A stretch of DNA of 52,683 nt from Nitrosomonas sp. (GTDB lineage Bacteria; Pseudomonadota; Gammaproteobacteria; Burkholderiales; Nitrosomonadaceae): assembly GCA_028577615.1 (NCBI GenBank), contig JAJSDU010000020.1, positions 1 through 52,683 of the forward strand, written 5' to 3'. Positions 27,807 to 52,683 of the stretch are shown here, one piece after another. How positions within the stretch are numbered: position 1 is the first letter of the stretch; each line of letters starts with the position of its first letter. The translations under genes and the position numbers were made by a program. The notes under the pieces were generated by a model, which was not told where the DNA came from, ran no database searches, and saw only the letters and a list, made by a program, of their open reading frames with translations.

Positions 27807-27814
27807 TGTCAATG

Positions 27815-28914: not shown

Positions 28915-28931
28915 AAAATCACCTTTTAAAT

Positions 28932-29657
28932 TTATTCTTCAAGTACTGCGGTGGTATAAACGGCCTGCACATCATCGAGACTCTCCAGTGCGTCCAGCAG
29001 TTTCTGCATTTTGATTGCGTCATCGCCAGCTAAAACCGTTTCATTGGCCGGTTTCATGGTCACTTCGGCGATTTCGGCGATGAATCCCGCTTTTTCCAAA
29101 GCTTCCTTCGCGGTTACGAATTCATACGGCGCGGTGATGACTTCTATACTCCCGTCCGCGTGGGTAATAACATCCTCGGCGCCCGCTTCCAAGGCGGCAT
29201 CTATGAGTTTTTCCTCGCTGGTACCCGGTGCAAAAAGAAATTGCCCACAATGCTTGAACAAAAAGGCGACTGATCCGTCGGTTCCCAGATTACCACCATA
29301 TTTGGTGAAGGCATGCCGCACATCGGACACTGTTCGCACGCGGTTATCAGTCATGCAATCAACCATGACTGCCGCACCCGAAACACCATAGCCTTCGTAA
29401 CGAATTTCTTCATAATTCACGCCGTCAAGATCACCACTGCCACGTTTGATGGCGCGTTCCACATTATCTTTCGGCATGTTGTGGCTATACGCCTTGTCCA
29501 TTGCCAATCGTAAGCGAGGGTTACTGTCCGGCTCAGCGCCACCCAGACGGGCTGCTACGGTAATTTCCTTGATAAGCCGGGTAAAAATCTTGCCACGCTT
29601 GGCATCCTGCGCCGCTTTTTTATGCTTGATATTAGCCCATTTACTATGACCAGCCAT
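28932..29657 (-). CDS. yebC: YebC/TACO1-family protein
   Basis: A 241-residue cytoplasmic protein beginning with the signature [22 protein letters not shown] cut here to [14 protein letters not shown]. Further family blocks are [64 protein letters not shown] and the C-terminal [20 protein letters not shown]. The family has been described both as DNA-binding transcription regulators and, in recent work, as ribosome-associated factors that relieve stalling at proline stretches. Its place directly upstream of ruvC is a widely conserved arrangement. Length and sequence are ordinary. Confidence 0.96.
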
Positions 29658-29787
29658 GGATATCTTTCTCTTTGATGTGGAATAACTTATCTTACCACTG
29701 CATCAGTCCGGGATAAAGTAGTCGTCCAGTGCTCCAGCGGGACAGTCTGCCGATCAGCGCTAAAATGGAAAAACTCTAAGATATTCA

Positions 29788-31635
29788 TCATTCCACTGTT
29801 ACCGCTTTGGCGAGGTTACGCGGTTTATCCACATCAGTGCCCTTTACCAGCGCTACATGATAGGCCAGTAATTGCAGTGGAATCGTATGCAGAATCGGGC
29901 TCAGAATGCCTGCATGTTCTGCAAGCCTTATGACGTGAATCTGATCGCTTTCTTCGATCTGCGTATCGGCATCCGCAAACACATACAACTCTCCGCCGCG
30001 CGCATGTACTTCCTGCAAATTTGATTTCAGTTTACTCAGCAACTGATCATTCGGTGCTATGGCGACCACGGGCATTTCTTTGTCTACCAGCGCCAGCGGT
30101 CCGTGCTTCAATTCACCTGATGCGTAAGCCTCGGCATGAATATATGAAATCTCCTTAAGTTTCAATGCGCCTTCCATGGCTATCGGGTAATGCACGCCGC
30201 GTCCGAGAAATAACGCATGCCGCTTTTCCGAAAATCGTTGCGACCATTCCTGCACTTCCGGTTCTATCTGCAAGGTTGATTGCAACGCTGCGGGCAAATG
30301 GCGCAGCGCCGCGATCACAGATGCTTCCTTCTCAGGGGGCAATTTATTTCGCATTTTCGCCAGCACAGTGGTCAGCAAGAGTAATGACGCCAGTTGCGTG
30401 GTGAATGCCTTTGTTGAAGCCACGCCGATTTCAGGCCCGGCGCGAGTCAGAAAACGCAGATCGGTCTGCCTGATCAGTGCGCTTTCAGCCACATTACAGA
30501 TCGCCAGATTATGCAGATGGCCAAGCGTTTTCGCATAGCTCATGGCTGCCAGGGTATCCGCTGTTTCACCAGATTGCGATATACCCACCACAAGTGTATG
30601 CGCATCGGCTATCGGGTTGCGGTAACGATATTCACTGGCTATTTCTACAGTACAGGGTAATCCTGCTATGGTTTCGAGCCAGTAGCGGGCCACCAGTCCG
30701 GCATGGTAGCTGGTGCCACAGGCCAATATTAACAAGCCTTTAGTTTGCGAAAAAATCTTCTCTGCAGCGCTGCCAAATAATCCAGGTGAAATAGCTTGCG
30801 CATTGAGCACCATTTCCAGCGTGTTGGCCACTGCGCCGGGTTGCTCAAAAATTTCCTTTTGCATGAAATGGTCATACGGCCCTAAATCAATTGCATCGCT
30901 GGTCAAATCACTTTGATGCACAGGGCGATTAATCTCCGGACCGAGAATTCCATTTTTACACTCATAAACAGCGTAGTGGTCTTTGTAGAGTTCAGCGATA
31001 TCGCCATCCTCCAGATATACCATGTTTCGCGTCGTTTTCAATAAGGCTGAAGCATCAGATGCAGCGTAATTGCCATCTTCTCCCAGTCCGAGCAGCAGCG
31101 GTGCGCCGTTACGGGCAACGACAATTCGTTCCGGATGGCTCTCTTCTATTACTGCTATAGCATAGGCGCCCTGCAATTCCGAAATTGACTGACTCACCGC
31201 TTTCAGCAAGCTGTCTGATTTTCTTAAATTAAATGCGATCAAATGTGCGATAACTTCGGTATCCGTATCAGAGTCAAATTGAAAACCTTCATTCTGCAAA
31301 CGCTTTCGCATGATTTCATGATTCTCGATAATACCGTTATGAACCACGGCAATTTTCGATTCTCTGCTGGAAAGATGTGGATGAGCGTTACGTTCTGAAG
31401 GCTCTCCATGCGTGGCCCACCGTGTATGCGCAATACCTGCAAACCCATTGGTTTTCTGTTCGGCAACTTTTTTTTCCAGCTCCGCCACACGACCGGCTGT
31501 GCGGAGTCTTTGCAGTCCGTTACTGGTAATCACCAAACCTGCGGAATCATAGCCTCGATATTCCAGGCTGAATAATCCATCCAGCAGAACCGGAACTATA
31601 TTTTTTTCAGCAATTGCGCCCACAATACCGCACAT
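29788..31635 (-). CDS. glmS: GlmS glutamine-fructose-6-phosphate aminotransferase
   Basis: A 615-residue enzyme that makes glucosamine-6-phosphate from fructose-6-phosphate and glutamine, the first step to UDP-GlcNAc for peptidoglycan and LPS. The N-terminal nucleophile cysteine is in MCGIVGAIAE, and the glutaminase domain contains GIAHTRWATHGEPSERNAHPH and VVHNGIIENH. Two SIS sugar-isomerase domains follow, with LACGTSYHAGLVARYW, ISQSGETADTL, TRAGPEIGVASTKAFTTQ and the C-terminal DVDKPRNLAKAVTVE. It lies 42 bases after glmU in the same orientation, so precursor synthesis and activation are co-expressed. I saw no glmS ribozyme, which is mainly a feature of Gram-positives. Confidence 0.97.
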   Translation of the reverse strand: MCGIVGAIAEKNIVPVLLDGLFSLEYRGYDSAGLVITSNGLQRLRTAGRVAELEKKVAEQKTNGFAGIAHTRWATHGEPSERNAHPHLSSRESKIAVVHNGIIENHEIMRKRLQNEGFQFDSDTDTEVIAHLIAFNLRKSDSLLKAVSQSISELQGAYAIAVIEESHPERIVVARNGAPLLLGLGEDGNYAASDASALLKTTRNMVYLEDGDIAELYKDHYAVYECKNGILGPEINRPVHQSDLTSDAIDLGPYDHFMQKEIFEQPGAVANTLEMVLNAQAISPGLFGSAAEKIFSQTKGLLILACGTSYHAGLVARYWLETIAGLPCTVEIASEYRYRNPIADAHTLVVGISQSGETADTLAAMSYAKTLGHLHNLAICNVAESALIRQTDLRFLTRAGPEIGVASTKAFTTQLASLLLLTTVLAKMRNKLPPEKEASVIAALRHLPAALQSTLQIEPEVQEWSQRFSEKRHALFLGRGVHYPIAMEGALKLKEISYIHAEAYASGELKHGPLALVDKEMPVVAIAPNDQLLSKLKSNLQEVHARGGELYVFADADTQIEESDQIHVIRLAEHAGILSPILHTIPLQLLAYHVALVKGTDVDKPRNLAKAVTVE

Positions 31636-31677
31636 TTCAAGCTCCTCTCACCCGTGTATAACCTGAATCCTGATTTC

Positions 31678-33051
31678 TCATTTATGCTTTGACGGCCGTT
31701 TCCATCCTGTCAATGTCACTTGCCTAGTCCTTGATAAGGTCAATTCATTTTCCGGCGTATCCTTGGTAATTGTTGAGCCAGCGCCGATAGTTGTCCCCCG
31801 GGAAATTTTTACCGGTGCAACCAGCTGTGTATCTGAACCGATAAATACATCATCTTCAATAATGGTCTGATGTTTGTACGCACCATCGTAATTACAGGTA
31901 ATCGTACCTGCTCCAACGTTGACATTGCTTCCCATAACTGTATCGCCGATATAACTCAAATGATTAACCTTGCTGCCTTCAGCTATAACACTTTGCTTGA
32001 TTTCCACGAAGTTTCCAATGTGCACATTGTCATTAAGATTCGTGTCAGGACGTATTCTTGAATAAGGACCGATTCTGCAGTTCGTACCTATTGCTGAGTT
32101 TTCAATATGCGAGAAAGGATGAATAGTCGTGCCATCCGCGACCGTGACATTCTTTAATACACAGTTTGCCTTTATTTTTACCCTGTTACCCAGTTTTACA
32201 TGGCCTTCAAACAGACAATTGACATCAATCTCCACGTCATTGCCGCATTCCAGCCGCCCACGAATGTCAATGCGCGATGGATCATATAACGTCACACCGT
32301 CTTCCAGTAATCTGCCCGCGTTTTCTTTCTGATAAATGCGCTCTAGTTCTGCCATTTGGGCGCGGCTATTCACGCCTAGGATTTCCCAGTTATGATCCGG
32401 TTGCGCAGATAGAATCGGAACATTTTCATCGACAGCCATTTTAATCAGATCGGTCAGGTAGTACTCTTTTTGCGCATTATCATTTTTGAGTTTTGGCAAC
32501 CATGCATGTAATTTTCGATTAGGAATGTACATTATTCCCGTATTGATCTCATTAACTGACCGTTGTGTTTCAGTGGCATCCTTCTGCTCAACTATACATG
32601 CTATCGCACGCGTGTCCTCATTCCTGATAATTCTCCCGTAGCCGTAGGGATTTTCAAGTTCGGTTGTGAGTATCGCGCACTTTTCTTCCGAGCCTTCCTG
32701 AACGAGTTTGCTGAGTGTCCCCGTACGTACTAATGGAACATCACCATACAAAACCAGAGTCGCGCCGTCTTCATCAAGTTCCGGCAAGGCTTGCAATAGC
32801 GCATGACCAGTACCAAGCTGGGGTTCCTGTTTAATCCAAATAAGATCATTTGTACAAAAGCGTTCGATGACCTGCTCGCCGCCGTGACCTATCACCACAC
32901 AAATCCGATAAGGCTGCAGCGCCCTCGCCGATTCTAATACATGCGAAAGCATCGGTCTTCCGGCCAATTCATGCAGTACTTTCGGCAATGAAGACTTCAT
33001 GCGCTTACCAATTCCAGCTGCCAGTATCACTATATGTAGTTTCGATCCCAT
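31678..33051 (-). CDS. glmU: GlmU bifunctional UDP-GlcNAc pyrophosphorylase/GlcN-1-P acetyltransferase
   Basis: A 457-residue two-domain enzyme. The N-terminal uridyltransferase (about 1-230) has the nucleotide-binding motif LAAGIGKRMKSSLPKVLHELAGRPML, then EQPLGTGHA-like QEPQLGTGHALLQALP and YGDVPLV. The C-terminal left-handed beta-helix acetyltransferase (about 250-457) shows hexapeptide repeats, GPYSRIRPDTNL, GNFVEIKQS, KVNHLSYIGDT and GAGTITCNYDG. It acetylates glucosamine-1-phosphate and then couples it to UTP, giving UDP-GlcNAc. It is the first gene of the glmU-glmS pair and is separated from atpC by the atp terminator. Confidence 0.97.
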   Translation of the reverse strand: MGSKLHIVILAAGIGKRMKSSLPKVLHELAGRPMLSHVLESARALQPYRICVVIGHGGEQVIERFCTNDLIWIKQEPQLGTGHALLQALPELDEDGATLVLYGDVPLVRTGTLSKLVQEGSEEKCAILTTELENPYGYGRIIRNEDTRAIACIVEQKDATETQRSVNEINTGIMYIPNRKLHAWLPKLKNDNAQKEYYLTDLIKMAVDENVPILSAQPDHNWEILGVNSRAQMAELERIYQKENAGRLLEDGVTLYDPSRIDIRGRLECGNDVEIDVNCLFEGHVKLGNRVKIKANCVLKNVTVADGTTIHPFSHIENSAIGTNCRIGPYSRIRPDTNLNDNVHIGNFVEIKQSVIAEGSKVNHLSYIGDTVMGSNVNVGAGTITCNYDGAYKHQTIIEDDVFIGSDTQLVAPVKISRGTTIGAGSTITKDTPENELTLSRTRQVTLTGWKRPSKHK

Positions 33052-33152
33052 TTGCGTGATTCAGTAGGTAAAATCAATATTCTATAGCTTTCCTGAATTA
33101 ATCTGAAATCGATGTGATAACAAAAATCAGGGTATTTCTCAATCGTTTCTTA

Positions 33153-33187
33153 TAAAAAAAAAGGCGACTTTGATTGTCGCCTTTTTT
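33153..33187 (-). terminator. intrinsic terminator of the atp operon
   Basis: Read on the minus strand, GGCGAC, a 7-base loop and GTCGCC form a stem (33163-33181) followed by a run of about nine T residues. It lies 20 bases beyond the atpC stop. A-rich sequence on the other side lets it act in both directions, but no plus-strand gene needs it. Confidence 0.9.
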
Positions 33188-33206
33188 AATTTACTTTGAC
33201 AGTGTA

Positions 33207-33629
33207 CTAATGTCTCCGTCTTCTCAATTTTTCAATAGCTGCCAACTGAGAAACAGCTTCCATCAATTCAGCCTGTGCTTTTGCGTAATCCAATTCTGAA
33301 GCTTTGTCCTTCATGGCCTCTTCGGCTGCGCGTTTTGCTTCTATGGCCTTTGCTTCATCCAAGTCATGACTCCGTATTGCAGTGTCTGCAAGAATCGTCA
33401 CAACATCAGGCTGTACTTCAAGCATGCCGCCTGAAACATAAACCAGTTCTTCTTCTTTTAATTGCGCTTTTATACGCACCATGCCGGATTTTATTCGGGT
33501 TAGCAAAGGTGTATGGCGTGGATAAATACCCAACTCCCCCATTTGCGCAGGTGCGACCAGAAATTCAACTGGCCCTGAGTATATCGACTCCTCTGCACTG
33601 ACGATATCGAGATGAAAAATGGTACCCAT
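33207..33629 (-). CDS. atpC: ATP synthase F1 subunit epsilon
   Basis: A 140-residue subunit of the central stalk. The N-terminal beta-sandwich has [45 protein letters not shown] and [24 protein letters not shown]. The C-terminal two-helix domain (from about residue 90, with [16 protein letters not shown] and the final AIEKLRRRR) can inhibit ATP hydrolysis by inserting into the catalytic head. It is the last gene of the operon, 15 bases after atpD, followed by the intrinsic terminator. Confidence 0.96.
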
Positions 33630-33644
33630 TAATTTTGATCCGTT

Positions 33645-35928
<2,284 letters not shown>

Positions 35929-35931
35929 AGC

Positions 35932-37473
35932 CTAGTATGTTCCGTTCTTTTTAAATTCTTCAATTGCAGCTTTGAGGCTTTTCTCTGTTTCCGCATCCAG
36001 ATCTTTTGTGCTTTCTATTTTATCCAGAATTGCGCCGTGCTGTCCGCGAATATAACTCTTTAAAGCTGCCTCAAAGGCCAGCGCTCGATTTACTTCAACA
36101 TCGTCATAATAACCATTATTAATCGCAAACAACGTCAACGCCATCTCGGAGACACTTAATGTTGCGTATTGCGGTTGCTTCATCAATTCTGTCGCCATTT
36201 TCCCGCGATCAAGCTGTTTTCTCGTCGCATCGTCCAGATCTGATGCAAATTGTGCAAACGCAGCCAGTTCACGATATTGAGCCAGTGCTAAACGAATACC
36301 ACCACCCAGTTTCTTGATAACCTTTGTCTGTGCAGCGCCACCAACACGGGAAACTGATACACCCGCATTGATCGCCGGGCGTATACCCGCGTTAAATAAA
36401 TCCGTCTCCAGGAAAATCTGTCCATCCGTGATCGAAATCACATTAGTTGGTACAAATGCCGTCACGTCTCCAGCTTGTGTTTCAATGATCGGCAACGCGG
36501 TCAGCGAACCCGTTTTACCCTTCACAGCGCCATTTGTATTTTTTTCCACATACTCTGCATTAACACGAGCGGCACGTTCCAATAAACGTGAATGCAGATA
36601 AAATACGTCTCCAGGATACGCCTCACGCCCCGGCGGTCTTCTTAAAAGAAGTGAAATTTGCCGATAGGCCCAAGCCTGTTTCGTCAAATCATCATAAACA
36701 ATCAGTGCATCCTGTCCTTTATCGCGAAAATATTCACCCATTGTACATCCGGAATAAGGTGCGATAAATTGCATCGCCGCAGACTCAGATGCAGTCGCTG
36801 CAACAACAATGGTATATTCCATTGCGCCAAATTCTTCCAGCTTACGCACAACGTTTGCAATTGATGAGGCTTTCTGACCAATTGCCACATAGATGCATAG
36901 CATGTTCTGCCCTTTTTGATTGATGATCGCATCAACCGCAACGGCGGTTTTTCCGGTCTGCCGGTCGCCAATAATCAGTTCGCGCTGCCCCCTGCCCACC
37001 GGCACCATTGAATCGACTGACTTCAGACCTGTTTGCACTGGCTGGTCTACTGATTTACGCCAGACAACCCCCGGAGCAATTTTCTCGATGGGTTCAGATC
37101 TATCAGCCGTGACAGGTCCCTTTCCGTCTATAGGTTGGCCTAGCGCGTTAACAACGCGCCCGAGCAATCCCTCTCCTACCGGCACCTCCAGAATTCTTCC
37201 GGTACACTTTACCGTATCCCCTTCGGAAATGTGTTCGTAGGACCCCATAATAACAGCGCCCACCGAATCTCTTTCCAGATTGAGCGCGAGTCCGAATGTA
37301 TTGCCCGGAAACTCAAGCATCTCGCCCTGCATCACATCAGACAAACCATGTATGCGTACAATACCGTCTGTAACTGATACGATAGTCCCCTGCGTACGAA
37401 CCTCTGCTGTATCAGCAAGTCCTTCTATCCTGTTTTTAATCAGTTCGCTGATTTCGGATGGATTTAACTGCAT
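35932..37473 (-). CDS. atpA: ATP synthase F1 subunit alpha
   Basis: A 513-residue non-catalytic nucleotide-binding subunit. The Walker A motif [15 protein letters not shown], the region [47 protein letters not shown], and the arginine finger in VSRVGGAAQ are all present, as is the N-terminal [11 protein letters not shown] segment that contacts delta. It alternates with beta in the head and contributes the arginine finger to the catalytic sites. Spacing to atpH is 12 bases and to atpG 3 bases. Confidence 0.97.
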
Positions 37474-42038: not shown

Positions 42039-42068
42039 AAATCAATGTTGCATGCAAATCAAAACTTT

Positions 42069-42114
42069 GGACAAACAAAAGGGAGCTGTGCACACAGCTC
42101 CCTTTTGTTTGTCC
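42069..42114. terminator. perfect 22-bp inverted repeat, strong terminator
   Basis: GGACAAACAAAAGGGAGCTG followed by TG, the two-base loop CA, and the exact complement through CAGCTCCCTTTTGTTTGTCC. The GC-rich core flanked by A- and T-rich arms makes an intrinsic terminator in both directions. It lies 42 bases past the ppiC stop and 30 bases before the ABC exporter start. Confidence 0.85.
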
Positions 42115-42156
42115 AGCATTGACAGCACAATAAAAACTATACGATTAACCGTGTAG

Positions 42157-42603: not shown

Positions 42604-43418
42604 TCAGGCACGGAAACGCAATTTACTCAATTCAAGCATACTGACCAGCGGAATACTGTCAAAAAAATGAAAACTGAACTGTCGAGTCTGATAACCTGTT
42701 TTTCTTCTGACAGACACAGCGATTCGATGACTATTATTGGGATAAAATAGCCAGCTGCGCCAAGATTCGGCATAATCAACTCGAACTAAAGGCAGTTCGA
42801 GTCTTATATTGTCATTCATAAATTCCGATCTGCTCGTTCCTATATGAAAGCCGAATTCACGCAAGGATAAGGATAGTCCTAATCCATGGGCTTTGATATG
42901 CGATTCTTTTTAGTGTCCAATAATCAAAGAAACGACTGCGCTGCTCATTTTCAGGCGTTTTGAGCAGCTCTGAAAATTCCTCTGGAGAAAAATAATTTTC
43001 AGCAATGGAAAGAATACACAGCTTCTGTGAATCATTTCCACATCACAACCGATATCATCATTCACCGTAACAGCGCCGATGATCACGTCATCTGCATGAC
43101 TGATACTAAATCGCAAGGGTAACGGTGGATTAATCATTTCCGGCTTGCCATGTGAATTCTGCCTAAATCGCCAAGAATGGGCGACATATTTACATAACGT
43201 GACAGCAAATCACGCACAAAGACTCGTGTTATCAGCGTATAATGGCGCTTCTTGGGACAAAGATAGGCAATTTGCTTCAACCGCTCATCTTCAGTCAGTA
43301 AGTCTTGATAACGCCTCAACAAGTCAGTTTGGCGTATTCTGTTTGCCCTCGAAATCCAAATATGGATGTCGTTGCTTTCCAGCGGCAAAATCGAAAACAA
43401 ATCGGCAAAACCACGCAT
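42604..43418 (-). pseudogene. Sfp-type 4'-phosphopantetheinyl transferase with three frameshifts
   Basis: Three consecutive frames together spell a complete Sfp-like enzyme. The first (43418 to ~43150) has IHIWISRANRIRQ, TEDERLKQIAYLCPKKRHYTLITRVFVRDLLSRYV. The second gives HGKPEMINPPLPLRFSISHADD and GCDVEMIHR, the substrate and Mg-binding core. A third stretch reads AENYFSPEEFSELLKTPENEQ and RFFDYWTLK, and the last continues as HIKAHGLGLSLSLREFGFHI. Joins need single-base changes near 43150-43155, near 43020-43024, and in the T5 run at 42907-42911 (plus-strand numbering). Intact enzymes attach the phosphopantetheine arm to carrier proteins such as the ACP of the PKS in this operon. It begins 10 bases after the outer-membrane protein gene, so it was part of the operon. 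Confidence 0.85.
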
Positions 43419-43428
43419 CCGGGATTGA

Positions 43429-44676
43429 TTAAAAAAAACGAATTATCCGGATTTGGACGTAATCATCATTTCGCATACCGGTCAGAATGTCTTTTGATTG
43501 TCCCCTGGTGAAATCATTGGCGGTTACATTCAGGAAAAGTGTTGATTCTGCCTCTATTTTCCATTTTTCCTGCAGACGACGGCTCGCATTCAGTCTGAAA
43601 ATCGACGCGCGCGTCTCCAGATCAATTGTATTACCGACAACAAGCTGCGTATCGGGGGCATCATTAAAATTTAATCGAATCCCAAAGAATAAGTCGTTAT
43701 TAAAAGGCGTGGGAGGCGCGGTCCGGTCTCGCCCATCATATAAATATTCAAGCATAACGCCCATATCTGTACCGCTGTTTAAAACACCATAAAAGGTATA
43801 TTCAAAACCCGCCACAACTGCGGCAAAGCGATTTTCGCCCTGGCCGCTTCGCGTCAGGGCTTCAAGCTTCCACAGCCAATTGTCAACGGCACCCTGAATA
43901 TCGATACTTGTCTGATGGATCAGTTCATAAAAAGGCGTTAGCACACTCGTGTTTTGATTAGGCAATACGCCGCCTTCATCCAGAAACCTGAGGCTCGGCT
44001 CACGACCAACACCCCAGAAATGCGACAACCCGATATCCCAAAGACCGAAAGTATGATTCCAGCGACCGGCAAAACTGGGATGCCAGCGATCGAATCCGTC
44101 AAATAGCGGATCTTTACTATCTACCGGCAATTCAAAACGCAGGCGGCCACTTCGTGCCGGAAAAGTCCGATCCCGGAAATAAGGCAGGTAAAACAAACTG
44201 AAATTACCATAATCCGTCGAATAATTCAGATTAACCATAGGCTGACCCAATTTTTCCTGGCCATTCAAATTTTCCACCAGATCAACCTGATTGATCACAT
44301 CAATCAAATGCCGGGATTCCGTTGCTCCCCAGAAAATTTTACCCACGCCCACTCTTAAATCCCAGTTTCTGCCGAGATGAAGCCAGTTAAGTTCACGAAT
44401 ATCAAAATGTGTTCTGTTTTTATCCTGACTGTCTACACGCCCGAACGGTATAAAGGTTATACGATCCGAACCGGAATTCCATTCACGCCGGAATTCCGGT
44501 TGAAGCATGATTGAAGGATTTAGCGTATTGTCATTTTGCACCGCATACGAAGGAGATTGCGTATAAAGTCTGAAATCCAGCAATCCATGCCCCGATATTT
44601 CCACTGCGGATAATACGGCCGAGAAAAATGTGGCCAGTGTTGCAATGATGCAGTTAGCCACATAACGAAACCTCAT
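43429..44676 (-). CDS. outer-membrane beta-barrel protein of the PKS operon
   Basis: A 415-residue protein with a signal peptide (MRFRYVANCIIATLATFFSAVLSAVEI) and alternating amphipathic strands up to a C-terminal phenylalanine (VQIRIIRFF), as expected for an outer-membrane barrel. ATG 44674-44676, four bases after the stop of the LolA-like gene, gives the signal peptide directly; an upstream open extension would overlap that gene. A conserved-looking block VGKIFWGATESRHLIDVINQVDLVEN recurs in outer-membrane proteins that I associate with RND/MMPL and LolA-like genes. The role is probably as the outer-membrane end of the export path; channel activity is not shown by sequence. Confidence 0.8.
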   Translation of the reverse strand: MRFRYVANCIIATLATFFSAVLSAVEISGHGLLDFRLYTQSPSYAVQNDNTLNPSIMLQPEFRREWNSGSDRITFIPFGRVDSQDKNRTHFDIRELNWLHLGRNWDLRVGVGKIFWGATESRHLIDVINQVDLVENLNGQEKLGQPMVNLNYSTDYGNFSLFYLPYFRDRTFPARSGRLRFELPVDSKDPLFDGFDRWHPSFAGRWNHTFGLWDIGLSHFWGVGREPSLRFLDEGGVLPNQNTSVLTPFYELIHQTSIDIQGAVDNWLWKLEALTRSGQGENRFAAVVAGFEYTFYGVLNSGTDMGVMLEYLYDGRDRTAPPTPFNNDLFFGIRLNFNDAPDTQLVVGNTIDLETRASIFRLNASRRLQEKWKIEAESTLFLNVTANDFTRGQSKDILTGMRNDDYVQIRIIRFF

Positions 44677-44680
44677 TCTC

Positions 44681-45463
44681 TTACCTGATATTTCTAAGGG
44701 CATCAACAGAAAAATCCCTATCGCTGAAACCATTCCTGAATTTGTAGTTTTTTCGCAATAATTCGGTACTTTTCCCATTCTGATGATTCGTCATTACCAA
44801 TTTCCCCGCTTTCCAGAAACGGTCGATATGCAATTCATAATCACTGAAAATGAGCGTTTTAAGTAATTCGTTTTTACGATCATAGAAATCGATTCTGCGC
44901 GGCTGATAAATCGTTTTATCAATCCACTCAACTTGGCGGGTATAGCCTGAATACTCATACGCAGGGATATTTTCGACAACAAAGGTATCGTATTCACCCA
45001 GCATTTCATCTCTCAGGTATTTATAGGTATATTTTTCCAGCTCCCACGACGCGATATCTTCAAATGCAAATTCACTGCCCACAAACGGGCCCGATTTGTT
45101 GACCGTTGATATACGCTTCACCCTTTTTAAGGAAGGCAGGTAAAGCCATTGATCGTCAGGTTCCAAACCATGCGAATGTGTCAGAACTGCCGTACCCCTG
45201 ACGTCAGCCGGACTCTGAAAAACACCGATTTCCTTATCACCGTCACCTTCGACTTCAAGCGTTTTAACCATGAACAAACGCGTGCTTTCTTCACCCCGGG
45301 CATTCCGTAGCGTCATATAGGCCTCATGCATACTGTCGACAAAACCATTGTCCCGCCGGTTAACTTCTGCTTGAATGGCATATCCTTTTTCTTCCGGGGT
45401 CTGCGCAAACCCGTCAATACTGATTAGTAACACTGACACAATAATTAAAATTATATTTTTCAT
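44681..45463 (-). CDS. LolA-like periplasmic lipoprotein-sorting family protein
   Basis: A 260-residue protein with a cleavable signal peptide (MKNIILIIVSVLLISIDGFAQ) and the fold of the LolA-like outer-membrane lipoprotein-sorting family (PF17131 type). Characteristic segments are AVLTHSHGLEPDDQWLYLPSLKRVKRISTVNKSGPFVGSEFAFEDI, cut across here, and the late block FYDRKNELLKTLIFSDYELHI. The start is ATG 45461-45463, with GAGGAG upstream. Proteins of this family lie next to MMPL/RND transporters and are thought to carry hydrophobic molecules across the periplasm. It lies 39 bases after the MMPL gene and 4 before the outer-membrane protein gene. Confidence 0.88.
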   Translation of the reverse strand: MKNIILIIVSVLLISIDGFAQTPEEKGYAIQAEVNRRDNGFVDSMHEAYMTLRNARGEESTRLFMVKTLEVEGDGDKEIGVFQSPADVRGTAVLTHSHGLEPDDQWLYLPSLKRVKRISTVNKSGPFVGSEFAFEDIASWELEKYTYKYLRDEMLGEYDTFVVENIPAYEYSGYTRQVEWIDKTIYQPRRIDFYDRKNELLKTLIFSDYELHIDRFWKAGKLVMTNHQNGKSTELLRKNYKFRNGFSDRDFSVDALRNIR

Positions 45464-45502
45464 GAATATTCTCCTCGTATGAATAATAGAAAGGCCCATG
45501 CG

Positions 45503-47845
45503 CTACTTCAGTAAAGTTGTTGCACTCTGAATGCGTAAAGATTTTTTGTTCGCCGAACAAGCTTTTGATTTTTCGATGAACATGAGTATAGGGGGGAGTA
45601 ACAGAAAATCAGCCAGCAGTCCCAGGGCAAAAATAATCGCAGTCAGCATTCCCATCTCCTGATTAATCTTGAAGCTCGATAATGCCAATATCAGGAATCC
45701 AAGAATCAGCACCACAGAAGTAATCCACAATGCGGCGCCAACCGTTATGAAGGTATATCGCACCGCATCCTCCGGAGATAAGCTCAACTGTTCGCGCGCA
45801 TACTGATACCGGCTTAAGAAATGCACCGTGTCGTCAACCAGAATGCCAAGCGTCATGGCGATAACCACCGAAGAAGCCATGCCAACCTGCCCGACCAGCA
45901 ACGCCCAGACTCCAAAGGCCATACCGGCCGGAATTAGATTGGGAATCAGACTGAGCGAACCGATTGACGCCGATTTCAGTACAAACATTAACAACACTGA
46001 AATCAAGCCAATGGCAAATAACACACCGCCAATCATGCTGACGATATTTCTTTGCCCGATATGGGCAAACAAAAGCGTTGTACCCGTACCGTCGCTATGC
46101 GCGAATTCCGGCGCATACGTGTCCAGCCATGACTGCGCCCTCTTTTCCAGATCAATAACCTGCTGGCTTGAAATACTGTGCAGGGAAGCCGTGACACGTG
46201 TTGCCGATTTTGCAACATCGATACGGTCATTAAGATCAAGGCCGTAAGGTAGCGACATTTCAAAAACGAGCAAATATTGCGCGGCCATTTCCGAAGTCTC
46301 GGGCAGCCGGTACCAGGCCGGGTCGTCACCATGCATATTCTGGTTTAAACGTTTAAGAATGTCTGTAATAGCAAATACATGAATCGTTTCCGGCTGCTGG
46401 CGATACCATTCAGCGAAAGCATCGACTGTTCTGAGAAACCCGGGATCATTGATTCCGCCTTCCGCGCCGGATTTCAGCGAATAGTCAATCCTGTAAATGC
46501 CGGTCAGATGATCGGTCGTATAATCCGTATCCTGTCTGAACTGCACTGACGTATCAAAGTACTTTACATATTCATCATCCAGTGTATTCAAAGGAATGCA
46601 CGCAATCAGCGCCATGACCAGAACTGACAGCAGAATGAAATATTTTTTCCCATGAAGCAGAATATTATTTGCCAGTCTTTCCCATAGTTGATTGCTTCTT
46701 GCAGAAAATGCGTTTTTTGGCGCCGGCAGCGATACAACCAAAGCCGGCAGCAGGCTGATGGCAAACATAAAAGCGATTCCCACACCCATCGCCGTGATAT
46801 TACCGAGGTCACGAAACGGCGGTGATTCACTGAAATTCATGGAAAGAAAGCCAATGGCTGTTGACAGATTGGTAAAGAAGATTGCTTTAAAATTGCCACT
46901 CAAGTTATCCGCCATGGCTTGAATTTTTTCCTTCCCCTTCGCCAGCAATTTGTAGTAACCCGTTAAAATATGGACAGTATTTGCCACAACCAATGTCAAC
47001 AGGATTGTTGGCGCCGGAATACTGGAGGGCGAAAATGCAATATCCAGCCAGCCAGCCAGGCCAACCGCTGCAACAAGCGATACCGTAATCATCACAGTCG
47101 CAGCCAGAACACTCCATGCTGATTTAAGCAGAAACCATAAGACAACAATGATGACCGCCAGCATAGCCGGTGTGAGCGTACGCATATCCAGCTCCGAGGC
47201 TTCCGCAAACGCAGTATCCATCATCACCGAACCTGTTATGCGGATATCCAGGTCAGGGTATTGCAATTTCAACTGATCGGCTTGTTTCCGGACGAAACGG
47301 GTGACATCGCGGGTTTCAGTATCCAGATTGACGCCCGGCCGCTGAATAACCACATTAAAGCCCATCACTCTCGAATCCGGCGAAACCAGCCGGTTTACAA
47401 GAAGCGGTTCATTTAATGCATATTCTCGAATCTGCGCGATTTCCGCATCCGATAACTTTGCAGCATTGATCACCAGATCCTTTACGGTAAGGTCATCGCC
47501 GTCTGCGTAACTGTGCTGGAAATTGGTAATTGAATCAACGCGCGTTGAATGCGGTGTTTGCCATAAATTACGCGTGAGTTGTTCGGCTACCGCCAGGTTG
47601 CGGGATGTGAAGACATTGCCGTCAGCCGGCGTAATCACCAGCAATACGTTGTCATCCCTGGTGTACGTTTTCTGCAAGCTTTCATAAGCCATTAACTGCG
47701 GATTATCTTCACTGAAAAACATGCGGTAATCACTTTTAAAGTGAAGATACTGAATCCCATAGCCCGCCAGAGCTGTCAATGACAGACATAAAACGACAAT
47801 CAACCAGCGCTGCTGGAGAATATATTGCGCATAAGCTTGTACCAT
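45503..47845 (-). CDS. MMPL/RND-superfamily lipid-type exporter
   Basis: A 780-residue inner-membrane transporter with the two-fold RND layout. A first helix (about 13-30) and a large periplasmic domain (about 35-220, starting with FKSDYRMFFSEDNPQL) precede helices at about 225-400. A second helix, a second periplasmic domain (about 430-610) and the last five helices follow, with AMTLGILVDDTVHFLSRY in the canonical RND helix 10 region (G-x-x-x-D-x-x-x-x-x-x). MMPL proteins export lipids, polyketides and similar hydrophobic molecules using the proton gradient. Immediate neighbours are the AOS (12 bases upstream) and the LolA-like protein. No membrane-fusion protein or TolC gene is in the operon, consistent with a LolA-like periplasmic carrier instead. 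Confidence 0.92.
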   Translation of the reverse strand: MVQAYAQYILQQRWLIVVLCLSLTALAGYGIQYLHFKSDYRMFFSEDNPQLMAYESLQKTYTRDDNVLLVITPADGNVFTSRNLAVAEQLTRNLWQTPHSTRVDSITNFQHSYADGDDLTVKDLVINAAKLSDAEIAQIREYALNEPLLVNRLVSPDSRVMGFNVVIQRPGVNLDTETRDVTRFVRKQADQLKLQYPDLDIRITGSVMMDTAFAEASELDMRTLTPAMLAVIIVVLWFLLKSAWSVLAATVMITVSLVAAVGLAGWLDIAFSPSSIPAPTILLTLVVANTVHILTGYYKLLAKGKEKIQAMADNLSGNFKAIFFTNLSTAIGFLSMNFSESPPFRDLGNITAMGVGIAFMFAISLLPALVVSLPAPKNAFSARSNQLWERLANNILLHGKKYFILLSVLVMALIACIPLNTLDDEYVKYFDTSVQFRQDTDYTTDHLTGIYRIDYSLKSGAEGGINDPGFLRTVDAFAEWYRQQPETIHVFAITDILKRLNQNMHGDDPAWYRLPETSEMAAQYLLVFEMSLPYGLDLNDRIDVAKSATRVTASLHSISSQQVIDLEKRAQSWLDTYAPEFAHSDGTGTTLLFAHIGQRNIVSMIGGVLFAIGLISVLLMFVLKSASIGSLSLIPNLIPAGMAFGVWALLVGQVGMASSVVIAMTLGILVDDTVHFLSRYQYAREQLSLSPEDAVRYTFITVGAALWITSVVLILGFLILALSSFKINQEMGMLTAIIFALGLLADFLLLPPILMFIEKSKACSANKKSLRIQSATTLLK

Positions 47846-47857
47846 TTTAAAACCTCT

Positions 47858-49231
47858 CTACTTAATCACCGGAGGACATTCCGCACTGGCCAGTACGTTC
47901 ATTTCCCTGGCGAGGGTATTGACCGTAAAAATTACATCGTCTTCCGTTAAATTGCTTGTAATAAAAAAACGCAGCCGCGCTGCGGACTCGGGCACGGCCG
48001 GATACAGGATGGGATGGACGCATATACCCGCACGCATGAGCCGCTGGCCCAGTTTCAAGCAGGCAACGGAATTTCCGGTAATGATCGGCACAACCCCCGT
48101 TCCTTCGGCCAGCCCCGTATCCAGACCATTCCTATGCGCATGTTCCAGAAAAAGTGAAGCACGATCGCGAAGACGCGCCGATCTTTCCGGCTCCTGCTGC
48201 ATAATTCTGGCGGCGGCAAGCGCGGCGGCGGTATTCGCCGGAGATATTCCGACACTGAACAATATTGCACCTGCCACGTTGTACTTGATATTCTCAATCA
48301 GCGCATTTGAGCCGCAGATATATCCGCCGCAGCTTGCAAATGCTTTGCTGAGGGTGCCCATCCAGATATCCACGTCTTTTCCGCTGACAGCAAAATGATC
48401 ATGGGTTCCCAAACCACGCGATCCGATCACACCGGCCGCATGCGCCTCGTCAACCATGAGCAGGCAATGATATTTTTTCTTGATCCTGATAAATTCAGGC
48501 AGATCGGCGATATCGCCATCCATGCTGTAAACACCCTCGATCACGATCAGAACGCGCTCATAGCGGCCTCGGTTCGCGGCCAGCAGTTGATCAAGCGATT
48601 GCCAGTCATTGTGCGGGAATGCCATCCTGCGCGCCCCCGAAAGAATACAGCCGGTGATGATGCTGTTATGCGCCAGACTGTCATGCAGCACAAGATCTTT
48701 CGGTCCGAACAAGTGGCCGATTACCGACACATTGGTCGCATAACCACTGACAAGGACAACAGCATCTTCAGTATCGTGCATTTTTGCCAGTTCTTTCTCC
48801 AGTTCTCTGTGCAGCGGGATTTCGCCGGAAACGATCCTGCTGGCCGATACAGAAGTTCCATACCGATCAATTGCATCCTTGGCCGCTTTGCTGACATCAG
48901 GGTGCCCGGACAAACCCAGATAGTTATAACCTGAATAATTAATGTACTCCTTGCCGCCAAAACCGGTAACATGGTCACTTACGCTGTCATGCACTGAAAA
49001 ATAGGGATTGTCGAGTTTTAGCGCCGCAAAAGTTTTAATCTGCTCTTTGATCAGGGAAAACCCCGGGAACTTATCAAATTGGTAAAACTCGTCCGGTATC
49101 TTTTTCTTTGCACCCAGTCGATTGGCAGCCTGATCAACGCCGCTGTTTTTCCCTGTTTCCGCACTCGCCAGCAACTGCCGGAGAAATTGGCGTTTTTCCT
49201 CACTGTTCATACCTGCAACATCTTTTTGCAC
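47858..49231 (-). CDS. alpha-oxoamine synthase family PLP enzyme
   Basis: A 457-residue fold-type I PLP enzyme of the KAPA synthase/5-aminolevulinate synthase/serine palmitoyltransferase family. Key blocks are YINYSGYNYLGLSGHPDV, RYGTSVSASRIVSGEIPLHRELE, LVLHDSLAHNSII with the cofactor-stacking histidine, EGVYSMDGDIADL, MVDEAHAAGVIGSRGLGTHDHF and GTLSKAFASCGG with the PLP lysine. It is ~60 residues longer than KAPA synthase at the N-terminus (MNSEEKRQFLRQLLASAE, then FYQFDKFPGF), which could dock to the PKS. Such enzymes condense an acyl thioester with an amino acid and lose CO2. Placed 15 bases after a PKS without thioesterase, it is probably the chain-releasing enzyme, giving an alpha-aminoketone. 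It is unlikely to serve biotin or haem synthesis. Confidence 0.85.
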   Translation of the reverse strand: MQKDVAGMNSEEKRQFLRQLLASAETGKNSGVDQAANRLGAKKKIPDEFYQFDKFPGFSLIKEQIKTFAALKLDNPYFSVHDSVSDHVTGFGGKEYINYSGYNYLGLSGHPDVSKAAKDAIDRYGTSVSASRIVSGEIPLHRELEKELAKMHDTEDAVVLVSGYATNVSVIGHLFGPKDLVLHDSLAHNSIITGCILSGARRMAFPHNDWQSLDQLLAANRGRYERVLIVIEGVYSMDGDIADLPEFIRIKKKYHCLLMVDEAHAAGVIGSRGLGTHDHFAVSGKDVDIWMGTLSKAFASCGGYICGSNALIENIKYNVAGAILFSVGISPANTAAALAAARIMQQEPERSARLRDRASLFLEHAHRNGLDTGLAEGTGVVPIITGNSVACLKLGQRLMRAGICVHPILYPAVPESAARLRFFITSNLTEDDVIFTVNTLAREMNVLASAECPPVIK

Positions 49232-49246
49232 TTTATAATCGCTCCT

Positions 49247-52200
49247 TCAAGACATCAGTTGTTTAATTAGCGCATCGACATCTTCTTCAGATAGCCGGTC
49301 GACCAGCGAATCCTTCTGCTCTGCACTCTCCGCCATGGCATTGCCTGCCAGCTTTGTCTTTTCAAAAATCGCCTCGACGATCAGACTTAAGCTTTGTCCG
49401 CGCAGCAGTTCCAAAGTGGAAATTCTCACGCCAAATGTCTGGAAAATCGCAGCCTGTAGCTCGGCTGCCATCAGTGAATCCACACCAAGCTGGGTTAAGG
49501 AGTGCTGCATCTCGATTTTTTCAACGGGTATACGCAGCGTTTTGCCGATTTGCACCTGGAACGCCGTTGACATCGCAGCAATCCGCTCATGCGCCGGTAA
49601 CCGGCTGATCTCCTGGCAAATACCGGTCATTTGCGAATCTGCAGCGCCAGATGACGGCATCAGCTCTGAGAAACGGGGTGAGTTACCGCCCATCGGCTCA
49701 AATTCCCGCCAGCGAGACCAGTCAGTGTTCATTAACCCGTATTGCGCCAGTTTCATATTTCTCATGCTCGCCCATAGATCCAGCGATTCCCCTGCATCCA
49801 GCGGCGTTATGCCCATATTCTCCAGATGTTTGCTGACTTCCTCGCTTTCCAGCGCCATACCGGTCGCAATAGCGCCCCAGTTGATGCTGGTTGCGGGCAA
49901 TCCATTCGCCTGGCGATGGCAAGCCAGCGCATCAAGAAAAGTATTTGCGGCTGAGTAATTGGCCTGACGGCCATTTCCGATCAAAGCAGAAACCGATGAA
50001 AACAATACGAAGAAATCCAACGCCATGCCGGCGGTCAATCGATGAAGATTCCATGCTCCGATCGCTTTAGCCTGCATCACGGTGGAAATCCGGTACGGAT
50101 TCAAATCACGGATCGGCGCATCGTGCAATACCGCTGCTGTATGCAGAATTCCCTTAAGCGGCGGAAACGTTTGCCTGATCTTACTCAATAATTGTGTAAC
50201 CTGAACTTCATCAGCAATGTCAACCAGCGCTTCCATCACCTGTACGCCTTGTTTTTTCAGCGCCGCCAGCACTGTTTTTGCTGCATCTGTAGTCGCGCCG
50301 CGCCTGCCTGCCAGAACAAGATGCCGCGCGCCATGCTTGACCAGCCAGTTGGCAGTTTCCAGACCAAATCCGCCAAAACCACCGGTGATTAAATAAGAAG
50401 CGCCAGCATCCAATCTATATTCGTCATCGCCCAGCGAAACTGAGATTTCCGTTATATCGCTGAAAGATATCACCGGTGTTTGAAAATGACTTAATGCAGG
50501 CTCTGCAGACAGCTGCTTTGGCGAAAGCGGATACGAAACAGCGCAGGACAGCGGGTTTTCGCCCAAATAATGCGTGATTTCAGATAACATTCCGGCAAAC
50601 AGCGCGGGTGATGACAATGCCATAGCTAATCCATCCGGCTGGAAGAGAATCGTACCCAACTTATTTGAAGATGCTCTCGGGAAAACTGAATTCCGCGTAA
50701 TCACGATTTCACGCATCGCAGAAAAACCTGATCGGGGAAAAACGGCTTCCTCGCTATCCGCGTGAATCCATGCGCCAATTTCAGCAGATTGTCCTTTTTT
50801 TCTGAATGAATCAGCGAAATCAACTTTACGGGCATCCAGAACAGTCAAACCATGCCGTGATTCCAGCGCCCTGATTTGCGCGTCATCAGCGCTATAGAAC
50901 GTCAGATCTGCGTTCAACCATTTTGAGATCTCCAGCAGCGCAGATATGCTCAACCCGGACTGCGCATCAACCAGCAGTGTTTCCCCGGATGAAATGTTCG
51001 TCAGATACCTGAGCAGGTAGTAGGCTGGAAGCAGGGAAGCAGCCAGCGCGACCAGATCTGCCGGAGCCATCTCTTTAAGCGGTCCCGTTACAGTGAGTAC
51101 CTGCGTCACGGGCAGCGTGCAATGCGAGGCGGGCATGCCCTGAGCAGCGATAATGACGCGATCATTTTTGTTCAGCTGCGATACATGCCTGCCTGTCCTG
51201 CATACACGTCCTGTCGCCAGGTACCCATTGACCATGTTTTCCCCGCCAGGATCTGCTGCCGCAGCACCATCAAGGCATACATGGTCGACGGCAATTTCCA
51301 CTTCATGTGCTTTTGGCCGGACACGGAAGGTTGCTTTGAATGCAAAATCATCACTCAGCTGGAATGCTTCCACCTGCGCGGCATTGATCGATAAAGTCTG
51401 ATCACGGAAATCATCATCCGGTATTTCCACATGCGCCAGACGATGCACAAATCGCTGTGCATCGCGGAATGCCACGTCGTCCTCGGTATTGTCTGACAAC
51501 AGCTCGGTTATCAGTTGCGCAACAGATGACTCAACATGGCGGCCATCGAGATCGATCAAAGAACATTTAAACGCGGGAAATTCATTATGCGCAACCCGTG
51601 CCAGTCCTACCAGAGACGATTGCGCCAGATTGTTCAATCCGTCATCTTCTTTTACCAGATGCGCATCCTGTGTCACAAAATACAACCGGGGTGAAGCCGG
51701 AGTTAATACCGCTTCAACAATCTGCAAAATCTGCAACGCAGCGGATGTCTGCCCGACTCCTGCCGGATCGCCCGCAGCGCCAGACGCGTTTAAGCCCCAC
51801 AAGTAGACTATTCCGGCGCAGTTCCTGTCTTTTACGTATTCAAGAATCGTCCTGAGATGATGAATTTGATCGCAGTCCAGCGCGCGAATAGCGGGATCAC
51901 CCGTCTGATATATATCTGCAGCTTTGATCTGAAATACGTTGTTACCCGGTTCCGCTTCGAGCTGCGCGCACAGTGCATTGCAGGCATCGCTGTTATTCGC
52001 GAAAACAACCCACGCGCCGCTGCGATTATTTTCGGCTTCAATCGCCTGCTGCCGCCACTTCCATGCATAAGCATATTCTGCAAGCCGCGCCGCGGATTCT
52101 TCCTGCTTTGTCTGCAATGCCCTGCAGAACAAATTGTCTATCTCTACGCATAAATCCCCTGACGCGTCATACAGAAACAGCGAACCCCTGATGCCTGTTT

Positions 52201-52683
52201 TGTCTTTCTGCACCAGCTGCCCATGACACCAGAGCAGCTTCCCCGGAGGATTATGGTAGGTAATTTTTCCAATCGACACGGGCATATAGAAACAGGCATC
52301 ATCTTCAACCAAAGTAATGAGTGATTGGAAACAGCCGTCGAGCAAACAGGGATGCAGATAATAAGCGGACAGGTCGTCATGCAGATGATCATGCAGCTCG
52401 ATTCGCGCCAGCACTTCATTTTTCCCCCGATTTATCTGGCGAATGGTCTGGAAACAGGGGCCATATGCCAGACCTCTTGTTGCCAGACTGCTGTAAAGCA
52501 GACCGGTGTCTACGTGTTCGTCACATCGTCTGGAAATTTTTTCAAGCCTGTTCGCAGCCTGTCTACCGTTGCCTTTATTATTGCCGCCAGACTTCCATTC
52601 CTTCACTACCCCTGAGGCGTGCAACTGCCAGTTAGCCGAATCTTCCCGTTCTTTGCTGAAAAAAGAATACTTTCCGTTTTCAC
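49247..52683 (-). CDS. type I polyketide synthase, 3' part: DH-psiKR-(degenerate ER)-KR-ACP
   Basis: The frame is open to the right edge (window begins inside it with [20 protein letters not shown]); the TTG at 52624 is not a start. The KS-AT part must lie beyond the window. Order: DH C-terminal half (about 52130-52683) with the conserved YGPCFQ and the catalytic aspartate in [10 protein letters not shown]; a structural psiKR; an ER-like domain (about 50430-51360) whose NADPH loop reads QSGLSISA instead of GGVGxAA; KR (about 49850-50420) with [28 protein letters not shown] and the B-type LHD; ACP (about 49390-49580) with LGVDSL, serine at 49475-49477; and a C-terminal tail [15 protein letters not shown]. 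No thioesterase follows. Substrate choice and product cannot be told from this part. Confidence 0.92.

What the first reader, a model, noticed from the sequence alone, without database searches (positions are those of the whole stretch)
42604..52683. PKS - alpha-oxoamine synthase - MMPL - LolA-like - outer-membrane protein operon: a possible aminoketone-lipid synthesis and export system
Six genes on the minus strand with gaps of 15, 12, 39, 4 and 10 bases run from a type I PKS to a PPTase. The PKS ends in an ACP with no thioesterase, and the next gene is an AOS-family PLP enzyme able to release the chain by decarboxylative condensation with an amino acid. The following three genes cover inner membrane, periplasm and outer membrane. 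The set reads as one path that makes a hydrophobic amino-ketone (sphingoid-like or prodigiosin-precursor-like) and moves it to the outer membrane. I do not know this exact combination as a described system.
Basis: partly seen in the sequence, partly recalled or inferred. Interest (0 to 1): 0.8.

Follow-up and report, generated by a model that had tools for sequence, protein, structure and literature searches.

The report
Polyketide aminoketone operon with own exporter
An operon in a bacterium from an ammonia-oxidising genus joins a lipid-chain factory, an enzyme that caps the chain with an amino acid, and three envelope-transport proteins; it is a variant of a recently described sphingolipid pathway whose chain-saturating step looks dead, so it probably makes a polyunsaturated aminoketone and ships it to the outer membrane.

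Summary
The operon is real. Five genes (PKS C-terminal half, AOS, MMPL, LolA-like, outer-membrane barrel) are open; the sixth, a PPTase, is broken here, and the contig ends inside the PKS. The five-gene set occurs in 10 further same-genus genomes (in one the PKS lies on the other strand) and in one genome of another family. The genus is ammonia-oxidising. The PKS-AOS core is known: SgaAB of Pseudomonas fluorescens (PMC12134224), whose AOS has serine palmitoyltransferase activity and whose products are C24-C28 sphinganines. The variant is what is new. The enoylreductase (ER) motifs are present in 42 of 42 full-length PKSs of SgaAB-type loci and absent in 11 of 11 readable MMPL-linked ones, though the ER fold is still predicted. 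MMPL-linked PKSs form one group (100/100), and a close SgaC-like reductase is found in 0 of 12 of their genomes against 4 of 4. Of 53 SgaAB-type loci, 39 show a kps capsule gene and none MMPL. Best reading: an ER-dead iterative PKS makes a conjugated polyene, the AOS releases it as an alpha-aminoketone, and MMPL-LolA-OMP exports it, as proposed for aryl polyenes. Product and export are inferred.

The parts
49247..52681 (-). PKS, C-terminal 1144 aa (5' end cut by the contig end): DH part - pseudo-ER - KR - ACP, no thioesterase
   Evidence: complete relatives L071 and L075 are KS-AT-DH-(no ER match)-KR-ACP
52103..52558 (-). PKS dehydratase (DH), part inside the contig; HPCLLDGCF motif with the Asp kept, the His lies beyond the contig end
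   Evidence: PF14765 residues 42-193; motif alignment
50414..51439 (-). degenerate enoylreductase domain: ER fold predicted, NADPH loop and NFRD motif lost
49865..50401 (-). PKS ketoreductase (KR), TGGFGGFG loop and S/Y motif intact
   Evidence: PF08659 220 bits
49367..49549 (-). PKS acyl carrier protein, GVDSL motif
   Evidence: PF00550
47858..49231 (-). alpha-oxoamine synthase (AOS), PLP enzyme, 457 aa; motif TLSKAFAS (PLP lysine by family knowledge) from residue 293
45503..47845 (-). MMPL/RND-family inner-membrane transporter, 780 aa
   Evidence: PF03176 116 bits; weak PDB matches to MmpL4/5 and HpnN
44681..45463 (-). periplasmic LolA-like carrier (260 aa from the internal ATG)
   Evidence: PF17131 194 bits; PDB 3bk5 285 bits
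43429..44676 (-). predicted outer-membrane beta-barrel protein, no Pfam family
   Evidence: model pLDDT 70.8, barrel; closest PDB folds AlgE then porins
42604..43418 (-). broken 4'-phosphopantetheinyl transferase gene (pieces in three frames)
   Evidence: intact in L071

Best explanation
An SgaAB-like, AOS-terminated iterative type I PKS pathway with its own envelope export line. Steps: (1) the single-module PKS extends and processes a chain with KS, AT, DH and KR; its ER has lost the cofactor site, so double bonds stay and the chain is a conjugated polyenoyl-ACP (inferred from sequence). (2) The AOS condenses that chain with an amino acid, most likely serine, with loss of CO2, and releases a 2-amino-3-ketone (inferred by homology to SgaB). 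(3) No close SgaC-like reductase is found, so the product probably stays at the ketone stage or is changed by flavoenzymes that some relatives add. (4) MMPL lifts the lipid from the inner membrane, the LolA-like protein carries it across the periplasm, and the beta-barrel receives or inserts it at the outer membrane (inferred from families and the aryl-polyene precedent). In this strain the cluster PPTase is broken, so the pathway may be silent unless AcpS serves the PKS.
For: Gene set, order and spacing conserved. ER motifs in 42/42 full-length SgaAB-type PKSs, in 0/11 MMPL-linked PKSs with the region readable. ER region 77-85% identical in four SgaAB-type pairs but 27-52% in five MMPL-type pairs, while KS is 76-93% in the four MMPL-type pairs where it can be compared. 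The ER fold is still predicted for the window (CurK and MAS ER best). MMPL-linked PKSs one group, 100/100. AOS split from seven BioF/Kbl/ALAS/SPT/ThAOS references at 100/100, on the side of the SgaB-type enzymes. Close SgaC-like SDR 0/12 against 4/4. Three relatives insert a flavoprotein nearest to carotenoid isomerase/desaturase models (133.5 bits, below the cut-off of 586.9, L075 scanned), which fits a conjugated chain. The aryl polyene cluster has LolA-like ApeL and RND ApeM (PMC8253772).
Against: No product is known. An inactive ER can be helped by a separate ER, as in fungal LovB/LovC (recalled), and unmatched frames near the operons were not all scanned. The window's own KS, AT and DH His are not in the assembly. 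In four relatives (L076, L077, L082, L084) the Gly of the DH motif HxxxGxxxxP is Glu, so DH activity there is less sure. Serine as substrate is untested, and this AOS lies outside the SgaB-type group. The trio also occurs without the AOS in eight genomes. The PPTase is broken here. The ER loss may be a single event (one PKS group), so the many sequences are not independent evidence.
Confidence: 0.55

Rival explanations
1. The operon makes ordinary saturated long-chain sphingoid bases like SgaAB; a separate enoylreductase acts in trans and the ketone is reduced by an unrelated SDR.
For: PKS-AOS core homologous to SgaAB; three relatives carry an added flavoprotein that could act as a saturase; SDRs at 30-35% identity exist in eight of the 12 MMPL-type genomes.
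Against: No ER-like gene was recognised between the mapped genes (not every unmatched frame was scanned); ER dead in 11/11 readable MMPL-linked PKSs; no close SgaC-like SDR in 12/12 such genomes.
Confidence: 0.2
2. In this genome the pathway is a decaying relic: the PPTase is a pseudogene and the product is not made.
For: Frameshifts near 43185/43174, 43017 and 42914; the only ACPS-family hit over the cut-off in the own genome is a 136-aa frame of AcpS size.
Against: The other five genes have no internal stop; AOS, MMPL, LolA and OMP stay 78-90% identical to L071, the PKS part 57%; indels may be assembly errors; AcpS or an unassembled PPTase may serve.
Confidence: 0.3
3. MMPL-LolA-OMP is a general efflux line that happens to be co-transcribed and does not carry the PKS-AOS product.
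For: Relatives of the trio stand without the AOS in eight genomes, with a TetR-like gene upstream in L107, L108 and L111 (L107 scanned; the others by N-terminus).
Against: All 11 same-genus genomes with this AOS type, and G344 from another family, keep the trio directly downstream of the AOS; MMPL is seen in 0/53 SgaAB-type loci.
Confidence: 0.15
4. The aminoketone is a precursor of a small heterocycle (pyrrole or prodigiosin-like) or of a CAI-1-like signal, not a lipid.
For: AOS enzymes also serve such pathways (recalled: PigH, CqsA).
Against: The alpha-hydroxyketone autoinducer synthase model scores 172 against a cut-off of 428; no prodigiosin-type genes were recognised in the scans made, though none was specifically searched for; LolA and a barrel suit an envelope lipid.
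Confidence: 0.1

Closest known systems
SgaAB sphinganine cluster, Pseudomonas fluorescens MYb115 (PMC12134224)
   Same: Monomodular iterative type I PKS followed by an AOS; AOS release.
   Different: MYb115 itself was not in hand; its homologues here have an intact ER (42/42), kps neighbours (39/53), an SgaC-like SDR in the locus in 13/53 and no MMPL. The window type has a dead ER, no close SgaC-like SDR and the MMPL-LolA-OMP trio.
Aryl polyene cluster of E. coli CFT073 (ApeL LolA-like, ApeM RND, ApeN) (PMC8253772, passages)
   Same: RND transporter and LolA-like protein next to a polyene pathway; polyene lipid of the outer membrane.
   Different: Separate KS, KR and DH proteins and a thioesterase there; a type I PKS and an AOS here, with a beta-barrel OMP.
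WcbR and AOS genes of the Burkholderia capsule I locus (PMC4275268, passages)
   Same: Type I PKS WcbR close to a gene annotated 8-amino-7-oxononanoate synthase.
   Different: Set among capsule genes (SDR, KpsS); no kps match over 80 bits in the 11 MMPL-type loci.
Fungal PKS + AOS pairs such as Fum1/Fum8 (recalled; FUM13 is named in PMC12134224)
   Same: AOS releases a polyketide chain as an aminoketone.
   Different: Fungal; different chain processing and no MMPL-LolA-OMP line (recalled).
Mycobacterial Pks-MmpL lipid export (recalled)
   Same: A PKS lipid coupled to an MMPL transporter.
   Different: No AOS, LolA-like protein or OMP of this kind (recalled); PDB matches of this MMPL to MmpL4/5 are weak.

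Membership tests
SgaAB-type PKS-AOS sphinganine cluster | Single-module type I PKS directly followed by an AOS, no thioesterase | tested here: met
   (PKS N-half seen in relatives only)
SgaAB-type PKS-AOS sphinganine cluster | AOS falls inside the SgaB-type group | tested here: not met
   SgaB-type 27 rows one group (99/96); window in a separate 11-row clade (100/97); both split from 7 references (100/100). SgaB of MYb115 was not in the tree; Pseudomonas L052 and L056 stand in.
SgaAB-type PKS-AOS sphinganine cluster | Intact ER in the PKS (saturated chain) | tested here: not met
   42/42 SgaAB-type against 0/11 MMPL-linked
SgaAB-type PKS-AOS sphinganine cluster | SgaC-like ketosphinganine reductase in the genome | tested here: not met
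   54-58% identical match in 4/4 SgaAB-type genomes of the genus; 30-35% in eight and none in four of the 12 MMPL-type genomes, G344 included (query was the SDR of L052, not SgaC itself)
SgaAB-type PKS-AOS sphinganine cluster | AOS uses L-serine (SPT activity) | not testable with these tools
   shown for PfSgaB in PMC12134224 section 8
BioF / Kbl / ALAS / SPT / autoinducer synthase equivalogs | Score above the curated NCBIfam cut-off | tested here: not met
   BioF 354 (426), TIGR01825 308 (535), SPT 295 (640), 254 (500) and 188 (670), glycine C-acetyltransferase 300 (460) and 247 (493), ALAS 236 (339), autoinducer synthase 172 (428)
Aryl polyene cluster | RND transporter plus LolA-like protein beside the synthase | tested here: met
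   precedent
Aryl polyene cluster | Separate KS, KR, DH and thioesterase proteins | tested here: not met
PF17131 LolA_like | Score above Pfam gathering cut-off | tested here: met
   193.9 bits against 30
MMPL (PF03176) | Score above Pfam gathering cut-off | tested here: met
   116.3 bits against 20.5

The most novel reading that the evidence does not exclude
A previously undescribed class of bacterial lipid: a conjugated-polyene alpha-aminoketone ('polyenyl sphingoid') made by an ER-dead iterative PKS plus AOS in ammonia oxidisers and delivered to the outer membrane by an MMPL-LolA-barrel line, where it could act as an aryl-polyene-like shield against oxidants. It would mark a split of the PKS-AOS family into a capsule-linked saturated branch and an RND/LolA-linked polyene branch.
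Probability: 0.4. Interest if true: 0.75.

Novelty: new variant of a known kind. Interest (0 to 1): 0.6.

Why it matters
It ties a recently found sphingolipid-type PKS route to a dedicated envelope export line and gives a simple rule in the loci examined: the export module beside the PKS-AOS pair (capsule genes against MMPL-LolA-OMP) goes with an intact or a dead ER. That makes two open questions directly testable: what RND/LolA/barrel trios carry in Gram-negative bacteria, and whether ammonia oxidisers make polyene aminoketone lipids.

Tried and rejected
BioF, Kbl, ALAS, SPT or autoinducer-synthase identity for the AOS: rejected. Thioesterase: no match in the window part or in L071 and L075. 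Missing KS-AT half elsewhere in the own assembly: not found. AMO in the own genome: none, though 34 of 61 genus genomes carry it; the family rang in none of the 14 control genomes. Capsule genes beside MMPL-type loci: none over 80 bits in 11 of 11. Promoters and terminators: promoter-like sites 9 against 15.2 expected, terminator-like 16 against 11.8 expected; not used. One short tandem repeat and no tRNA in the window: no bearing.

Trees. Two AOS trees were set aside because wrong reading frames had been taken for ALAS references (L132 and L135 in 53, L135 in 57); the reference rows and the SgaB-type rows did not each form one group. One search is the tree used; L086 and L065 (dropped from then on) and L135 are not in it, and one ungrouped row (L085) lies among its references. 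In one search the MMPL-type AOS including L138 form one group at only 48/79; the 11 of the genus do so at 100/97. In the PKS tree L029, L037, L039 and L066 failed my KS pattern and were left out, SgaAB-type rows were thinned to 23, and the window (no KS-AT) is not in it. The label 'Kps' in the trees means SgaAB-type; some of those loci (for example L040, L065) show no kps gene in reach. The ER pattern was slightly looser than that.

Models. The OMP model is of middling quality (pLDDT 70.8), so AlgE likeness says barrel, not function. A methyltransferase domain does not separate the two types by Pfam: L078 has one, L052 shows none.
Full report
What is there. The window is a whole contig (52683 bases) of a 2.6 Mb, 58-contig genome. 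On the minus strand lie, in order, the C-terminal 1144 aa of a type I PKS, an AOS, an MMPL transporter, a LolA-like protein and a protein predicted as an outer-membrane barrel. The sixth gene is not intact: the PPTase lies in pieces in three frames. The contig ends inside the PKS, and no matching KS-AT half was found in the assembly.

Who carries it. Of 149 close genomes searched with the AOS, the own genome included, 20 match at 1e-60 or better, 16 of them in the same genus. Wide stretches of 16 of these 20 were fetched; of the other four, one is the own genome, G017 and G037 were seen only as 4 kb loci, and G144 was not mapped further. In the genus, 11 genomes (own included) have the window type with MMPL-LolA-OMP; four (G017, G021, G037, G044) have an SgaB-type AOS beside kps genes, the PKS of G017 not being recognised in its short locus; one (G048) has a more distant AOS that groups with SPT references. 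In G076 (L083) the PKS start lies on the opposite strand at a contig end, so the order is unsure there. G003, 76% complete, has a 3.9 kb contig with MMPL, LolA and OMP at 57-69% identity to the window's; no AOS was found in it and its PKS side is not on the contig. A class-wide search gave 12 of 369 genomes, own included, at 1e-90; one of them, G344 of another family, has PKS-AOS-MMPL-LolA-OMP tightly packed; the rest were seen with 1.5 kb flanks only, apart from three wider stretches of G152 and G436. In 34 of 61 genomes of the genus an AMO gene is found, so the genus is ammonia-oxidising (Nitrosomonas-like, recalled); the own draft shows none.

The PKS. Complete relatives L071 and L075 are KS-AT-DH-KR-ACP by Pfam, with no ER, methyltransferase or thioesterase match; SgaAB-type L078 and L052 have a recognisable ER, L078 also a methyltransferase domain, L052 none. 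In an alignment of 20 PKSs the KS Cys/His/His, AT GHSxG, DH His and Asp, KR and ACP motifs are kept in the MMPL type wherever readable (L084 has unread bases in its ACP); the Gly of the DH motif is Glu in L076, L077, L082 and L084; the ER motifs NFRD and GGxG are absent. Counted over all loci, 42 of 42 full-length SgaAB-type PKSs (from 53 loci) have both motifs; 11 of 11 MMPL-linked PKSs with the region readable (window, L071-L077, L082, L084, L138) lack them, L083 not being readable. In four SgaAB-type pairs the ER region is 77-85% identical, level with or above the KS (68-77%); in five MMPL-type pairs it is 27-52%, the lowest of the regions compared in four pairs and within one point of the lowest in the fifth. 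A model of the window's region from 11 sequences (pLDDT 77.4) still takes the ER fold, best matches CurK and mycocerosic acid synthase. So an ER was there and has decayed or been reused. The KS-AT tree puts 11 MMPL-linked PKSs (L083 and G344 included, the window not) on one side at 100/100, so the change may have happened once.

The AOS. It scores below every curated cut-off of the BioF, Kbl, ALAS, SPT and autoinducer-synthase models, as does the Pseudomonas enzyme L052. In the tree (50 rows) the window lies in an 11-row clade (100/97), outside a 27-row SgaB-type group (99/96); both are split from seven references at 100/100. L138 (G344) is a long branch and its place is unsure (48/79 for one MMPL-type group).

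Precedent. PMC12134224 (abstract, sections 8, 9 and 15 and passages read) shows that SgaA (iterative PKS) and SgaB (AOS with serine palmitoyltransferase activity) of P. fluorescens MYb115 give C24-C28 sphinganines, proposes that SgaC, an SDR, reduces the ketone, and counts 6101 homologous clusters; the terms MMPL, LolA and export do not occur in its text. The core of the finding is therefore known. An SDR like that of Pseudomonas L052 (taken here as SgaC-like) is found at 54-58% identity in 4 of 4 SgaAB-type genomes of the genus; of 12 MMPL-type genomes eight have matches of 30-35% and four none at 1e-15.

Export. MMPL and LolA-like are clear family members; LolA-like is close to PDB 3bk5 (285 bits). 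The OMP model is a barrel, closest to AlgE and porins. PMC8253772 (passages) describes the aryl polyene cluster with LolA-like ApeL, RND ApeM and ApeN as a proposed dedicated transport line, the nearest precedent for a polyene with this kind of exporter. Against exclusivity: seven same-genus genomes and G135 carry MMPL relatives at 42-44% identity without the AOS at 1e-60. In six of the seven LolA and OMP relatives follow; L113 (G070) is cut by its contig end; in L114 (G135) LolA follows and an OMP relative lies about 7 kb away.

Tailoring. Three loci (L075, L077, L084) insert a 534-535 aa flavoprotein between PKS and AOS; that of L075 is closest to carotenoid isomerase and CrtD/CrtI models but far below their cut-offs. 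L076 has an FMO-like gene upstream of the PKS; similar starts are seen in L082 and L083 (not scanned). The window is cut before any such upstream gene. A PPTase follows the OMP intact in L071, L072, L074 and L077; L073 has a similar 230-aa frame at that place (not scanned); it is split in L076, L082 and L084 by one base beside an A9 run; none was recognised in L075 and L138, and L083 ends before it.

Mechanism and confidence. Shown: gene order, domain content, ER motif loss, grouping in trees, no close SgaC-like SDR in the genomes searched. Inferred: polyene chain, aminoketone release, serine as partner, route to the outer membrane. I put 0.55 on the whole reading. Whether this strain makes the product is doubtful because of the broken PPTase.

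Novelty. Eight literature searches in the open library returned no paper that I recognised as describing PKS-AOS with MMPL-LolA-OMP; of most hits only titles and abstract starts were seen, and most subscription papers are not held. I rate it a new variant of a known kind.

Noticed in passing
L022-L070, L078-L081: SgaAB-type PKS-AOS loci lie beside kps capsule genes (KpsC, S, M, T, D or E relatives over 80 bits) in 39 of 53, two or more such genes in 31; PMC4275268 passages list WcbR, an AOS, an SDR and KpsS together in the Burkholderia capsule locus. The PKS-AOS lipid may be the lipid anchor of these capsules; the word capsule was counted 0 times in PMC12134224.
   Followed up: partly
L076:14747-15441, L082:15045-15752, L084:135-826: The PPTase is split at the same place by one base beside an A9 run in three genomes, two of them single-contig, while the near relative L077 is intact with A8: a shared frameshift or a transcriptional-slippage site.
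   Followed up: partly
L107-L114: MMPL-LolA-OMP relatives (31-52% identical by gene) stand without PKS-AOS in these loci; TetR gene upstream in L107, similar frames in L108 and L111; a Crp-like gene in L107 and an alcohol-dehydrogenase-like gene in L111.
   Followed up: partly
L139, L140, L141: AOS relatives (46-54% identical) with no PKS recognised directly beside them; L141 has an SgaC-like SDR (40%) next but one, with a 193-aa gene between (not scanned).
   Followed up: no
L038, L059, L125: The AOS match lies in long open frames (1175, 1332 and 902 aa), perhaps fusions with another part.
   Followed up: no
L083:1-4959: PKS start and an FMO-like frame lie on the strand opposite to AOS-MMPL-LolA-OMP, at a contig end.
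   Followed up: no
window 10922-15599; 26760-37473: Monovalent cation/H+ antiporter subunits A and D, then ruvB, glmS, atpD and atpA: a housekeeping neighbourhood.
   Followed up: no
window 42068-42115: A 20-pair stem-loop followed by a T-rich stretch, minus strand, between the peptidyl-prolyl isomerase gene and the next ABC transporter gene.
   Followed up: no
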